From Azoarcus sp. (GTDB lineage Bacteria; Pseudomonadota; Gammaproteobacteria; Burkholderiales; Rhodocyclaceae), in the NCBI GenBank assembly GCA_031277415.1, contig JAITMK010000131.1, positions 1 through 64,000 on the forward strand: a stretch of DNA of 64,000 bases. Reading direction: 5' to 3'. Positions 1,170 to 24,572 of the stretch are shown here, piece by piece; position 1 is the stretch's first letter; the number at the start of each line of letters is the position of its first letter. Made by a program: the position numbers and the translations under genes. The notes beneath the pieces are model-generated. The model did not search any database and was not told where the DNA came from. It saw only the letters and a program-made list of their open reading frames with translations.

Positions 1170-1245
1170 TGGTAGGGGCACAAGGGCTCGAACCTTGGAC
1201 CTACGGATTAAGAGTCCGCTGCTCTACCAACTGAGCTATACCCCC
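1170..1245 (-). tRNA. tRNA-Lys (anticodon CTT)
   Basis: Reverse complement GGGGGTATAGCTCAGTTGGTAGAGCAGCGGACTCTTAATCCGTAGGTCCAAGGTTCGAGCCCTTGTGCCCCTACCA folds as a cloverleaf; CTCTTAA anticodon loop; encoded CCA. Confidence 0.96.
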
Positions 1246-5180: not shown

Positions 5181-5363
5181 ATGAAAAAGTTATTTGTAAT
5201 AATTGCAGTTAGCTTTGTTGTGTTTTCCATTACAGGCGGCATGCCGGGTGGTATGGGAGGGGCGCAGTCTGCAAGGACTGCCCCTATCTCGATCATGAAC
5301 GTTAGGCTATATTGCCCCTCTCAAGCAGTTTGCCTGCATGTACGTAAATTTTTAGGAGAGTAA
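5181..5363 (+). CDS. Hypothetical small protein with signal-peptide-like N-terminus
   Basis: MKKLFVIIAVSFVVFSITGG; stop overlaps the start of the next ORF (TAATG). Confidence 0.4.
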   Translation: MKKLFVIIAVSFVVFSITGGMPGGMGGAQSARTAPISIMNVRLYCPSQAVCLHVRKFLGE

Positions 5364-6046
5364 TGATGCGTAAATCACGTCTTGCACCAGCAGTTTTGAC
5401 ATTTTTAGGGCTGACTCGACGGGCAGAATCTCAAGAAACAATTGCTACTCGTGAACAAGCTCTGACTTTTGAAGTCGAGAAGCTTTTCTACACACCGGAA
5501 AATGTTAGGGTATTGTCAAAATTATGTAGTGTATTAGAAATTAATTGTGGCGAAATAGCTAATAAAGGTAGATTTCGGCTTATTCAGTCCCAAATACGTG
5601 TGGAGCAGATAGAAGAGGAAGTTGCACGAATAGACAAGGAAGTTGCACGGATAGACATGGAAGTTGCGCGAATAGAAAGGAAAGTGGCATGGGCGGATAA
5701 GAAAATAGCATGGATCAATAGGGAGGTAGTGCAGATAGAAGAGGAAGAAGCGCGGATAGAAAAAGAAGTAGCACGGATAGAAAATGAAGCCACACAGATG
5801 GATGAGGAAGCAGTACGGATATATAAGGAGGCAGCACTGATATATGAGGAAGGAGCATGGATAAAGAATGACGCAGCACAGATAACAAGGGAAGGAGCAC
5901 AGATATATGAAGAATCAGCACGGATACATGATGAAGGAGCACGGATATATGATGAAGGAGCACGGATACATGAGGAAGCAGCACGGATATATGGGGAAGT
6001 AAAACGATTAGAGGCTGAGACTGATGCTATTGGAAAGCCTGATTAA
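5363..6046 (+). CDS. Hypothetical heptad-repeat (coiled-coil) protein
   Basis: 227 aa; residues 80-219 are 20 consecutive heptads (xARIxxE); translational coupling TAATG; RBS AGGAGAG. Confidence 0.7.
   Translation: MMRKSRLAPAVLTFLGLTRRAESQETIATREQALTFEVEKLFYTPENVRVLSKLCSVLEINCGEIANKGRFRLIQSQIRVEQIEEEVARIDKEVARIDMEVARIERKVAWADKKIAWINREVVQIEEEEARIEKEVARIENEATQMDEEAVRIYKEAALIYEEGAWIKNDAAQITREGAQIYEESARIHDEGARIYDEGARIHEEAARIYGEVKRLEAETDAIGKPD
5600..6019 (+). repeat. Coding minisatellite, 21-bp period, 20 units
   Basis: 20 x 21 bp = 420 bp encoding VEQIEEE VARIDKE VARIDME ... VKRLEAE. Confidence 0.9.
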
Positions 6047-6342: not shown

Positions 6343-9300
6343 CTATTTGGCCTCTATCTCAATTTTTTCGCCGCTTACCCAATGCTTGTGCTCGTCAAGG
6401 TAGAAGGCGTAGGCCCGCGAGGCCGATCCGGTATAGATGCCGGGTATGTTGGCCGTAAACGGTATGCTCAAGTCTACTTCGGTGTTGCCTTTCATTACTC
6501 GCCAGTACAGCACCAGTTCGCGCCCGATTATTTCGTAAGACGCAATCTGCCCGGCGCTTGCCAATTCTTTAAGGCGTTCGTGCCGAGGTTCAAGACCGGC
6601 GGGCATGCCGATTACGGCAAGAGGCATTGAAGTGTCGGTCTTGGCTTCTACTCTGACCTTGAGGTCCACCAGTTCCCCTTCCTTCACTTTTGAAGAGGAG
6701 AGCCTGGTAGAAAGTAGCAGCGGACATTCGTCGCTGCTGGCAGGCTGTGGGGTGTTGTAGGTTACGGTTACGACAAAGGGCATATCGGCCCCGTCTTCCA
6801 TGGCCAGTTCAATCCTGTGCTCGCCCGAAGTCATGGCCGCGCTGAAATCCGGCAGTACGATGGCGCTCTTGGAGTCTTTGTCGAAGGCAATCGGGTTGCC
6901 AAAAGGCTTGCCGTTGATTTTGAGTTGCGCTTTCCCCGGAGCTTTGGGCTTGCTGCGGGCGGCATCGTAGGCGTTGATAGCTTTGAGAACCAAGATTGTG
7001 GACTGGGTGCTGCCAAAGCGCCCGGCTTTGCAGTTTTCAAACAGCCAACTCATGGCCTGTTCAACCGCACCAGCGAACTCATCGCCAAGACGCAGCCAGG
7101 AAATTATGGCCAACGAGGTGGTTTCTATTTTGAGGGCGTCGCCGCCGGAACGGGTGATGGAGGTTTCAGCGCCGGTCAGATAGCCGTCCTTGTTCTGGGC
7201 CGTCTGCATCTTTTTGGCAGCAGCGAGGGCCGCCTCTTTTTCGCCCGCGAGATACATGATGTTTGCGCCAAGAGCCAGCAGGTACGGGTCTTTCGTTTCG
7301 CCCAGCAGCTTTTTGGCGGCGTTTATTTCAGCCTTGAGTTCGGATGGGTTTTCGCCGGATTCCAACAGAGTCCAGAGGATGTATAAATTGGTGAGCGGAA
7401 CCGGGGCTGCGCCAAAGGAGTCGAGGGCCCTGGTGTTGCGTTCGAATCCACCCTTGCCGTCGCGACGAGCCATGAGCCAGTTGCGGGTGCGCTCCACCAT
7501 GGCGCTGTCAACGGCCATTACCTTTTTCATTTCAGTAAACTGCATGAGGCCGTAAGCGGTCAAGGCTTCATGCCCCGGATTGTCGCCAAACCATTCATAG
7601 CCCCTGTCTTTGGACTCAAAGCCGATAAGGCGTTTGTAGCTTTCGTCCAAAAGTTTCTCGGCATTCTTGATTTTTTCGGGCGAAACACCGGGATGGCTCA
7701 GGAAATATTGCTGGGCCATTACCAGCGGAAAGCTGGTGGAACTGGTCTGTTCGAAGCAGCCGTAGGGGCTGCGCAAAAGCGCATTCAAGGCTTCTTCCAG
7801 GTTGGCCAACGGAGTGGGATAGATTTTGGCCTCGGCACGCATGCTGCCAGGCACGATTTCGCTGGCGATGGTGAAAGACCGGCCAAAAGGTTTGGTCGGC
7901 CCAAGCATGCCGGAAGCGTCCAGCTGCACCGGGAACCCACGGGGCAAAACCTTTATGGGACGGGTTACCGAGTCGGTATAGCCGCCAGCCGTTGCGTTGA
8001 GAGTGAGGAGGTATTGGGCGACAACGTCCGGTTCAAGGACAAGCAGCGCGCGAGAACGCGATCCGGCGGATAGTGTCTTGGGCATGGCTGAAATTGCGCC
8101 GGGTTTCAGACCTTCGGCTCGCGCCAGAATGGCTGGCTTGTCAAGCGCATGGGGCATGGAGTTGACAAGGGCTACGGGAAGATTTATCCGGTCGCCGGTT
8201 ACGACTTCGGGCGGAAACTTGGGCTCGATGTAGAAAGGTTCAAGAGATGCGATTTCGTGTGTGGTCTCGCCCAGGGCGCCATTGTTGCCAAAGGCGTCGG
8301 CCCGCAGACGGAAGGAGGTGACGCTGTCGGAAAGATCAAACTCCACGGTGGCCAGGCCATCCCGGGGGTTGGTGCGTATTCCGGCATTCCAGTACAAGGT
8401 TTCGGTGAAATCCACCCGGTCGTTGGGGCGGCGGTCTGGGCGCGCCTTGTGCGCGTATTCGCGCACGTATACGTCATACTGCCGTATCCGCGCCCGCGCA
8501 AATGGCTCCTCTATAATCGCCGCCATTGGCAGTGCCTCTGCCGCCGGCGCTGGCGCCGGCTTCGCTATTTCTTCCTGTACGGGTGGCATGTCCTGCAACG
8601 GTTCTGGCGACGGTAACGGTTCCGGCTGTTGCGCCGCTCCGTCCTGAGCGCCCTCCATGGCGAGTTCCGCCAAGTTCTGGAAGAGAAAATCCTCGTCCTT
8701 CGGGGCAGCCATCCGGCGTATAAATCTGAATTCGCCCATGCCTGCCGCCATCGGCATCTGATCAGGGGCAGGGGCAACTATGGCAAGGGCGCGGCGTACG
8801 TCTTCCGGGTTGTTTTTCAGGGCGTCGTCGAGGCGGGAGAGAACAAAACGCCGCCAGCCCTGCGTGCCCAGCAGCAGGTCGACCTGGCGGGCTGCTTCGG
8901 GGTTTTTGGGGTCGAAATACACATGCGCGTCGGCAAGGTCTTTCACTTCATTTTCAAGGTAGACCATCACCGGCAGACTGGGCGCCTGATCGCGTTTTTC
9001 GACCATCTCCAGCACAGCGTCGTCGGTCAGGACAAGACCCACCACGGCTTCCACCGGGTTGTTTTTTTCGTCTTTGGTCTCGATTTTCAGGCGCACTTTG
9101 CTTCCGGGCGTGGGCGACGACCCGGCGGGAATGGTTTCGACGCCAACGCCGATTTGCACTTTGAATTTTGGCTCGCGGAATACCAGGCGCTCGGCCAGCG
9201 GCTTGCCGGATTTGTTCCAGACAGTAGCAATGAGCACGCCTTCGACATCGTCGGGTTTCAGGCTTACTTCGTTTTGTCCGGCCTTGAGTTTGGCTTGAGC

Positions 9301-10526
9301 GACGAGCCGTTCGCGATGATATAGAGTGATCCAGGCTGCATCGGAATCTTCCGTGGCCCTGACATCCAGTTTTATTTCATCCTCGAAAGCATACGATGGC
9401 TTATGGGCTTTGATGGCAACCCCGGAGTCGGTGACCTCTGGCAACGGAAAAATACGGGTGATGCCCGAAGGCTTGAGCAGGCGCAGGGCATAGCGCCCTT
9501 TGGCCTGTGGGGTAAATTCCATGATGCCCCGGCCTTCATGAGTGGTGGTCAGCCTGGCCGCAGGCTCTGAAGATGCACGTGATGCACGCGGGGCAGGGTT
9601 GTTGTTTTTGTCCAGCAGGATGATTTCACCCTCCAGATCGGCGGGTTTTCCGTCCGGACGCAGGGCTTGCACATAGACGCGGCCAGGCAGGCCGGCTACC
9701 AGTTCGCCCCCTTCGGGATAAAACGCGATATCAAGGGTTTGCAGCAGAATAGGGATGGTTTTTGTGGCGGTTTCCACCACGCCGCCGTCTTCAATCATGA
9801 AGGCCAGCGTGCCTTCGCCACGCTCTATGTTTTTGGGCAATTTGAAGGAAACCTTGGCGTTGCCTTCCTTGTCCAGAGATAATTTCACACGCGCAACCTC
9901 GGCCTCGTCAACGCGGGCAATCGCCGTTACACGCGCCTTTTCCGGCACGCCGCCCTCGGCCCTTTTTACGTTTACGACGGCTGCGACTTCATCGCCCGGG
10001 CCGTAGCCCTCTCGCATGAACTCGATTTGCGATTTCAGCCGAGGCGGATTGTAGACCCGTACCTCAAAGGATCGCTCGGCCTTCATGAAGCCATCTACAG
10101 TGACCGAAGCCTTGTAACGACCGCCGGGCGTGCCATGCGGAATGTCCCAGGTAAAACCTGTGGTGCTGTTCTGGGTAGGAGCCCAGGTTGTGAAAAGTTC
10201 ATCATAACGGGGCCCGGTAACAGTAAGCTCGACACCACTGTTGTCTTGCATGGGGAAGAAGGTGTCGGAGCGGAGCATTACGGCGCGGGCGTAAATGGTT
10301 TCACCCGGCTTATAGATGGGTTTGTCGGTTGAAAGCAGAAGCAGAAAGCGTTCTTTTCCACCAAGGCGTTCGGGGGTCGGAACAGAAAATTCCGGGGCTC
10401 CGGCAGGGAGCGTTTTTCCAAAGATTGTTGTCGACATAAGGGCTATGCACACATGTATGAGGATGACGGCGCCTGTCGCGAGGATCGTCGAGAGGCCTAC
10501 TTTTTTGGAGCAGGAATGTCTACCAT
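6343..10526 (-). CDS. Alpha-2-macroglobulin family protein; main ORF 6343-10452, proposed true start ATG at 10526 in the -1 frame
   Basis: MG2-type DKPIYKPGETIYARAVMLR; thioester motif GCFEQ (7748-7759); complement-like C-terminal domains. Upstream ATG with GGAG RBS gives MVDIPAPKK, then A_AAA_AAG and TAG; a -1 shift joins it to a signal peptide in the main frame. Confidence 0.9.
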
Positions 10527-10566
10527 GCCAACTCCGGCTGGAATGATATTACCATGTATTTAGTTT

Positions 10567-10712
10567 CCGAATGCCATATTTTTTGAGTCACCCCTACCTG
10601 AAGGCAGGGGATTCCTCGATACGATCTTGGGGCGCCTTCGGCGCCAAGTGATACTTTGTCTCGCGCAATCTCCGCCATAAATGGCGGAGATTGCGCGAGA
10701 CGCGTGTTCAAA
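10567..10712 (-). repeat. Family D palindromic element (copy 1)
   Basis: CCCCTACCTGAAGGCAGGGG hairpin, GGCGCCTTCGGCGCC, and perfect 21-bp-arm palindrome GTCTCGCGCAATCTCCGCCAT-AA-ATGGCGGAGATTGCGCGAGAC (10658-10701); second copy at 24441. Confidence 0.85.
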
Positions 10713-10768
10713 TACGGGTTCAGACACCTGAACAGTCCATGCTTCCTGGTTTACCTGAAACCGTTTCC

Positions 10769-10846
10769 GTAGAGGCGACCTGTGGTCGCCCGGTGAATTG
10801 CGTGAATGAATGTGCAATGTATCGGGCGACCACAGGTCGCCCCTAC
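10769..10846. repeat. Family C paired-hairpin element, 78 bp (copy 1)
   Basis: GTAGAGGCGACCTGTGGTCGCCC..GGGCGACCACAGGTCGCCCCTAC; same length as 28225-28302. Confidence 0.88.
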
Positions 10847-11047
10847 CTCGCAGGTATGTCCCGCTCCGGCAGACGGAGGTGGTATTCTTTGCGGGTCGCG
10901 CGTTCGGTTGAATTTATGTCCGGTTTCACCAAGCATCCTGACAACATGTTCAACCTCGCTCGCAGGGCATCTCAAGGCTACACTTTGGGATGCCGGTTAA
11001 CATAAACGTTGGACCTCACTCCTGCCCACTGTCAAAAGGAACTTATC

Positions 11048-11542
11048 ATGAAGTTTTGCAAAGCTCTCATAGTCCTCTTTGCCCTAAGCATCGCTTATAT
11101 CCCGGCCAAGGCGGAAGAACTAACGCCCGAAAAGCGCGCAGACATCGAGCAACTCTTGACGATGACCGGTGCTTTGTCGCTCGGAAAACAGATGAGCGAC
11201 ATGGTTGTAAGCAACATGATACAAACCCTGAAAGAAGTCCGTCCCGACATTCCTGAAAAAGCACTTAACGTTCTGCCTGCGGAAATCGCAGCGGTCTTCG
11301 ATGAAAATATGGGCGCTTTAATGGAACTGACCATCCCCCTCTATCACAAATACTTTACCGCCGCCGAAGTGAAGGAGATGATTCGTTTTTATTCAACCGA
11401 TCTTGGGAAAAAAACGATCAGGCTAATGCCCGCCCTCATGCAAGAAGCCATGGTTGTCGGGCAGCAATGGGGTAAATCGTTTGCACCACAGCTCAATCAG
11501 CGAATCATGGAGAAACTTAAACAGCAAGGAATAAATCTCTGA
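11048..11542 (+). CDS. DUF2059 domain protein with signal peptide
   Basis: MKFCKALIVLFALSIAYIPAKA; FTAAEVKEMIRFYSTDLGKKTIRLMPALMQE typical of DUF2059. Confidence 0.78.
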   Translation: MKFCKALIVLFALSIAYIPAKAEELTPEKRADIEQLLTMTGALSLGKQMSDMVVSNMIQTLKEVRPDIPEKALNVLPAEIAAVFDENMGALMELTIPLYHKYFTAAEVKEMIRFYSTDLGKKTIRLMPALMQEAMVVGQQWGKSFAPQLNQRIMEKLKQQGINL

Positions 11543-11577
11543 TCCGGACGTTCACTCACTCCATAATGGGAAGCTCC

Positions 11578-12246
11578 ATGAAGCAAGCATTCGTTCGCCG
11601 CGCTGCCCTCGCCTTGATGATTGCTGTACTGGGCGCGGGTTGTGCATCGGTTACTGAAACTGAAGATGCCTTGGTAGTACCAGGTAGCAAGGAAGCAGCA
11701 AGTAGCGAAGAAGTAATAAAACAACTGTTAGTACTCACCAAGAGCAGGGATTTAGTAGCCGAAGCACATGATCAGATGAGATTCATGGTGCGTGTGAACA
11801 TGCAGCAGGTGCGGGCAGGACAGATTCTGGATGCCAGGCAACAAAAGGTCATAGAGGATATGGAGAACAAAATGCTGGCCCTTATTCAAAAGGAATTTTC
11901 CTGGGAGAGGCAGGAGGCACTCCACATTCGCCTGTACCAAGAAACATTCAGCAAAAAGGAACTGGATGGGTTGTTGAGCTTCTACAAGACAGCTACTGGG
12001 CAAGCCATCGCAAATAAGTTTCCGTTACTTACACGGAAGACGATGCTTCAGGCACGAGAGATCCAGCACGGCGTGCAAATTGGAGCGTCAAAAATTATGC
12101 AGGAGTCCTATTCTGAATTCATGGGCGCAGGTCACACAGGCATCCCGACAACGCCAGGCATCCCTTCAGAATGTCAAGTGGATTCAGACTGTGGGCAAGG
12201 GAAAAGTTGCCGGAACCGTATAGGGGGAGGAAATGAATGCCGGTAG
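11578..12246 (+). CDS. DUF2059-like lipoprotein with Cys-rich tail
   Basis: Lipobox LGAGC; FSKKELDGLLSFYKTATGQAIANKFPLLTRK; C-terminal CQVDSDCGQGKSCRNRIGGGNEC. Confidence 0.72.
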   Translation: MKQAFVRRAALALMIAVLGAGCASVTETEDALVVPGSKEAASSEEVIKQLLVLTKSRDLVAEAHDQMRFMVRVNMQQVRAGQILDARQQKVIEDMENKMLALIQKEFSWERQEALHIRLYQETFSKKELDGLLSFYKTATGQAIANKFPLLTRKTMLQAREIQHGVQIGASKIMQESYSEFMGAGHTGIPTTPGIPSECQVDSDCGQGKSCRNRIGGGNECR

Positions 12247-24440: not shown

Positions 24441-24572
24441 TTTGAGTCGCCCCTGCCTGGAGGCAGGGGATTCCTCGATACGGTACTGGGGCGCCTTCGG
24501 CGCCAAGTCATATTTTGCCTCGCTTGACTCCGCCATAAATGGCGGAGACTGCGCGAGACGCGTGTTCATGTC
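24441..24572 (-). repeat. Family D palindromic element (copy 2)
   Basis: Same arrangement as 10567-10712, arms partly degenerate. Confidence 0.85.

What the first reader, a model, noticed from the sequence alone, without database searches (positions are those of the whole stretch)
10495..10526. A2M gene: RBS+ATG start lies out of frame, joined by a perfect A_AAA_AAG slippery heptamer next to a TAG stop
On the minus strand, GGAG-TTGGC-ATG (10526) encodes MVDIPAPKK then TAG. The last codons read CC A_AAA_AAG TAG. A -1 shift there continues as VGLSTILATGAVILIHVCIALMSTTIFGKTLPA, giving a complete signal peptide fused to the alpha-2-macroglobulin ORF. The only in-frame start in the ORF track is a GTG at 10452, in the middle of that hydrophobic stretch. 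A_AAA_AAG is the heptamer used by E. coli dnaX (established knowledge). Options: programmed -1 frameshift limiting A2M export, phase-variable A6/A7 tract, or a homopolymer sequencing error. The sequence alone cannot choose between them.
Basis: partly seen in the sequence, partly recalled or inferred. Interest (0 to 1): 0.72.

Follow-up and report, generated by a model that had tools for sequence, protein, structure and literature searches.

The report
Private start-region frameshift in macroglobulin gene
A bacterial gene for a secreted protease-trapping protein has its start codon one base out of step with the rest of the gene; its readable relatives have ordinary starts, so this looks like a fresh one-base mutation (or, less likely, an assembly error), not a programmed frameshift switch.

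Summary
On the minus strand GGAG-5nt-ATG(10526) opens MVDIPAPKK*, ending CC A_AAA_AAG TAG. The 1,369-codon alpha-2-macroglobulin (A2M) ORF lies in the -1 frame; its first in-frame start is GTG 10452, inside the would-be signal peptide. Programmed frameshifting is not supported. Of 41 orthologs with a scoreable N-terminus, 40 have an in-frame start plus signal peptide, and the other has an in-frame ATG with a hydrophobic stretch; none has A_AAA_AAG near its start. There is no stimulatory Shine-Dalgarno at the required spacing, and the one small hairpin is within chance. The organism has a dedicated tRNA-Lys(CUU), encoded in this window, unlike E. coli, where a lone tRNA-Lys(UUU) makes the heptamer shifty. 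Its own dnaX lacks the heptamer. A6 is short for transcriptional slippage or phase variation. The heptamer is also what loss of one A from an A-run before G leaves behind, so it is not independent evidence. The gene is absent from 21 congeners and its body is intact. Best reading: a recent, lineage-private frameshift lesion uncoupling the ORF from its start; second, an assembly or strain-consensus error. No reads or conspecific genome were available to separate these.

The parts
10532..10535 (-). Shine-Dalgarno GGAG, 5 nt from ATG
10497..10526 (-). Short out-of-frame leader MVDIPAPKK ending in TAG
10500..10506 (-). A_AAA_AAG heptamer, directly before TAG
10471..10496 (-). 26-nt hairpin starting 4 nt after the heptamer, -10.2 kcal/mol, within chance (40% of random coding positions as stable)
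6343..10548 (-). A2M open frame (MG2, bait region, A2M and TED domains; GCFEQ thioester motif); first canonical in-frame start GTG 10452
1170..1245 (-). tRNA-Lys(CUU), a dedicated reader of AAG, bearing on how slippery A_AAA_AAG is in this organism

Best explanation
This is a thioester (GCFEQ) bacterial alpha-2-macroglobulin gene, found in this lineage but not in its congeners, whose ATG and signal-peptide N-region were put out of frame with the body by a recent single-base change, most simply loss of one A from the A-run near the ATG. Shown: the frame break, the full-length body, the absence of any good alternative start, the ordinary starts of orthologs, and absence of the gene from 21 congeners. 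Inferred: the break is a true, recent mutation; nearly all ribosomes terminate at TAG 10499-10497; little or no exported A2M is made. Any residual product would come from low-level spontaneous slippage.
For: 40 of 41 scoreable orthologs have an in-frame start plus signal peptide and none has A_AAA_AAG near the start. The break is private; internal frame changes in orthologs are rare and never at the start. The gene is absent from congeners and from family and order samples. The body is full length with an intact thioester motif, as expected if the lesion is recent. Non-triplet gaps against congeners lie mainly between genes or in compensating pairs, giving no sign of a high indel error rate. 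Dedicated tRNA-Lys(CUU) present.
Against: No reads or conspecific genome, so a true lesion cannot be told from an assembly error. An otherwise open 1,369-codon frame shows no second lesion, which would also fit a gene that is still expressed in some way.
Confidence: 0.58

Rival explanations
1. Assembly or consensus error: the organism's gene is in frame, and the draft lost a base at the homopolymer or collapsed a strain mixture.
For: Draft of 175 contigs in which no 16S was found, suggesting a metagenome bin. The break is private and the body intact. Singleton frameshifts validated by BLAST are often sequencing errors (PMC3711429).
Against: About 7,150 aligned codons of window ORFs show no clear frameshift against congeners; short-read assemblies rarely miscount A6 (general knowledge).
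Confidence: 0.27
2. Programmed -1 ribosomal frameshifting at A_AAA_AAG that limits A2M export.
For: Perfect heptamer in the right phase next to a stop; the joined frames give a good signal peptide; a compact hairpin starts 4 nt downstream.
Against: Not conserved in any ortholog; no SD 6-17 nt upstream; hairpin within chance; dedicated tRNA-Lys(CUU); own dnaX lacks the heptamer; the unstimulated motif is weak even in E. coli.
Confidence: 0.07
3. Reversible phase variation at the A-run, or transcriptional slippage restoring frame in part of the mRNA.
For: A homopolymer lies at the break; the product is an envelope protein.
Against: Six As only: selection against slippage is typically evident at about nine (PMC1088944), GeneTack uses a minimum of seven, the proven tssM1 case has eleven (PMC4256274). 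A6 runs are common in the window (17 A and 27 T).
Confidence: 0.05
4. Translation really starts at GTG 10452 (or a non-canonical codon) and the upstream ATG is irrelevant.
For: The GTG is the mechanical first start of the ORF.
Against: It lies inside the hydrophobic stretch and leaves a weak, uncharged leader; orthologs keep a full signal peptide; the well-spaced SD belongs to ATG 10526.
Confidence: 0.03

Closest known systems
E. coli dnaX A_AAA_AAG programmed -1 frameshift
   Same: Same heptamer in the same phase, near a stop codon
   Different: No upstream stimulatory SD, no structure beyond chance, no conservation, and an extra tRNA-Lys(CUU) in the host
Citrobacter rodentium tssM1 (transcriptional slippage rescues an interrupted gene, PMC4256274)
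   Same: An apparently broken gene with a poly-A run at the break
   Different: tssM1 has 11 As and proven slippage; here 6 As and no evidence of rescue
Singleton indel pseudogenes and errors as classed by GeneTack (PMC3711429)
   Same: A lone frame transition validated by homologs, without a conserved site
   Different: It happens to carry a slippery heptamer, the expected by-product of losing one base in such a run
Type I (thioester) bacterial A2M such as E. coli YfhM
   Same: CXEQ thioester motif, bait-region and TED domains
   Different: Shorter (about 1,400 aa), only weak sequence match to YfhM in the TED region, a different set of close relatives, and the start is out of frame

Membership tests
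Programmed -1 ribosomal frameshift (dnaX/IS3 type) | X_XXY_YYZ heptamer in the 0 frame | tested here: met
   A_AAA_AAG at 10506-10500
Programmed -1 ribosomal frameshift (dnaX/IS3 type) | SD-like sequence 6-17 nt upstream (bacterial stimulator) | tested here: not met
   Only GGAG is the initiation SD, about 26 nt upstream of the heptamer
Programmed -1 ribosomal frameshift (dnaX/IS3 type) | Downstream stimulatory structure 4-10 nt away | tested here: inconclusive
   26-nt hairpin at 4 nt, but 40% of random coding positions are as stable, 9.5% per nucleotide; larger windows no better than shuffles
Programmed -1 ribosomal frameshift (dnaX/IS3 type) | Conservation of the shift site in orthologs | tested here: not met
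   None of 41 orthologs
Programmed -1 ribosomal frameshift (dnaX/IS3 type) | AAG read only by tRNA-Lys(UUU), as in E. coli | tested here: not met
   tRNA-Lys(CUU) at 1170-1245 as well as UUU copies
Programmed -1 ribosomal frameshift (dnaX/IS3 type) | Measured -1 product | not testable with these tools
   Needs reporter or proteomics
Homopolymer phase variation or transcriptional slippage | Long run (7-9 or more) | tested here: not met
   Six As; thresholds
Homopolymer phase variation or transcriptional slippage | Mixed run lengths in DNA or RNA | not testable with these tools
   No reads
Thioester (type I) bacterial A2M | CXEQ motif | tested here: met
   GCFEQ
Thioester (type I) bacterial A2M | MG2, bait, A2M and TED domains | tested here: met
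   Pfam
Thioester (type I) bacterial A2M | In-frame export signal | tested here: not met
   As sequenced, the signal peptide is split across two frames

The most novel reading that the evidence does not exclude
A lineage-specific programmed -1 frameshift inside a signal peptide that meters export of a protease-trapping A2M, working at A_AAA_AAG despite a dedicated tRNA-Lys(CUU).
Probability: 0.06. Interest if true: 0.7.

Novelty: already known. Interest (0 to 1): 0.17.

Why it matters
If it were programmed, it would be an unusual case of frameshifting controlling protein export. As it stands it is a useful caution: a perfect slippery heptamer at a frame break is the automatic by-product of losing one base in an A-run followed by G, so the motif alone should not be scored as evidence of recoding. 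Ortholog starts and the host's lysine-tRNA set are cheap tests that discriminate.

Tried and rejected
Search for a same-species or congeneric ortholog to compare the A-run: none in 21 congeners or in family and order samples. The viral-contig scan failed three times on the server side. The plasmid collection gave no match. Promoter scan at 10300-11100: no sigma-70-like site, uninformative. NCBIfam and PADLOC gave no family for the A2M protein. Four frameshift candidates in the window against congeners were judged to be antisense or boundary open frames from the ORF map and the position of gaps, not by separate tests. A first dnaX scan used wrong orientations for several loci and was replaced. 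Reinitiation after TAG was rejected because the next in-frame start, GTG 10452, is about 45 nt away and inside the hydrophobic core (inference).

Full report
Observation. Reading the minus strand gives GGAG (10535-10532), five bases, ATG (10526), then GTA GAC ATT CCT GCT CCA AAA AAG TAG. The heptamer is at 10506-10500 and the stop at 10499-10497. The long ORF that follows is in the -1 frame, open from 10548 to 6343, and its first ATG/GTG/TTG is GTG 10452.

What the gene is. The open frame matches Pfam MG2, A2M bait-region, A2M and TED domains. It carries the thioester motif GCFEQ, invariant in every ortholog whose frame reaches that position. Solved relatives are human A2M, CD109, TEP1 and, more weakly, bacterial YfhM. 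It belongs to a set of roughly 1,350-1,460-residue thioester A2Ms found in Planctomycetota, Lentisphaerae, Kiritimatiellae and Proteobacteria. The nearest relative found is 59% identical, in a Desulfovibrio metagenome bin. None of 21 congeners has it, nor do samples of 200 family and 398 order genomes other than the window's own. One neighbouring DUF2059 gene was tested and is also absent from the congeners, and alignment with congener contigs begins only at about 12,400. The gene is therefore a private acquisition or a lone survivor in this lineage (inference).

Is the frame break shared? I scored the N-terminus of every ortholog locus in which the conserved DKP[ILVM][YF] motif and upstream sequence were readable. 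In 40 of 41 an in-frame start leads into a net positive N-region and hydrophobic core, and the 41st has an in-frame ATG with a hydrophobic stretch but no net charge. None has A_AAA_AAG in its first 40 codons; a few have other, weaker slippery-type heptamers. Frame changes inside the gene occur in 3 of 56 loci, one at an N-gap, and never at the start. The break is private to this copy.

Could the site be programmed? The heptamer is correct, but the accompaniments are missing or weak. First, no SD-like sequence lies 6-17 nt upstream, the range used in PMC4066793. Second, the only downstream structure that meets that paper's empirical rules is a 26-nt hairpin of -10.2 kcal/mol; 40% of random coding positions have one as stable and 9.5% one as stable per nucleotide, and longer windows fold no better than shuffles. 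Third, the organism encodes tRNA-Lys(CUU), in this very window at 1170-1245, as well as UUU copies. The review PMC5009743 attributes E. coli's shiftiness to weak pairing of its sole tRNA-Lys with AAG and suggests that a second lysine tRNA may explain why Thermus dnaX uses polymerase slippage instead. Fourth, the organism's own dnaX has no such heptamer, and only two of 21 dnaX genes examined in the genus carry AAAAAAG in that phase. The heptamer is not avoided in genus genes (8 seen, 6.6 expected in 120,161 codons), so there is no sign that it is costly. Even in E. coli, shift-prone motifs without stimulators reach only 2.1-10 times the no-motif background, which averaged 0.055%. A low level of spontaneous slippage cannot be excluded.

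Why the heptamer is weak evidence. In the A2M frame the same bases read TCC AAA AAA GTA, the commonest phase of AAAAAAG in genus genes (39 of 59) and natural for the lysines of a signal-peptide N-region. If the original leader held a longer A-run followed by G, losing one base produces A_AAA_AAG automatically, so the probability of the motif given an ordinary slippage deletion there is close to one. The lesion could also lie elsewhere between the ATG and the run.

Phase variation and transcriptional slippage. Six As are below the lengths at which these are usually invoked: about nine for selection against transcriptional slippage in many genomes (PMC1088944), a minimum of seven in GeneTack (PMC3711429), and A11 in the proven Citrobacter tssM1 case (PMC4256274).

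Error or mutation? The genome is a 175-contig draft in which no 16S was found, which suggests a short-read metagenome bin; this is inference. About 7,150 codons in 20 window ORFs align to congeners (some of the 20 are probably antisense frames), and the non-triplet gaps fall mainly between genes or in compensating pairs. This bounds the local indel error rate only loosely, to the order of 1e-4 per base. A true recent mutation is favoured, but an assembly or strain-consensus error is a serious second.

Verdict. An accurate observation of a private frame break at the start of an otherwise full-length A2M gene. The best mechanism is a recent one-base lesion that uncouples the ORF from its ATG, predicted to abolish nearly all export. 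Programmed frameshifting is possible but improbable.

Noticed in passing
window 10658-10701 and 10769-10846: Two strong inverted repeats in the intergenic region upstream of the A2M gene: a 21-bp perfect pair and a 33-nt 88% pair; one arm of the first recurs with one mismatch at 24539-24558. Possibly REP-like elements.
   Followed up: partly
L177 (G000 contig C67), 6601-10214: 28 tRNA genes in 3.6 kb, an array typical of a phage or mobile element, in the same genome bin.
   Followed up: no
window 5363-6046: Coiled-coil-like repeat protein (units such as VARIEKE...) with no Pfam match, at lower GC than its surroundings.
   Followed up: no
window 11009-11542 and 11566-12246: Two adjacent DUF2059 genes, divergent from the A2M gene; the first was tested and is absent from congeners.
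   Followed up: partly
L035, L036, L043, L056: A2M orthologs in other drafts carry internal stops or frame changes, probably assembly errors or decaying copies.
   Followed up: partly
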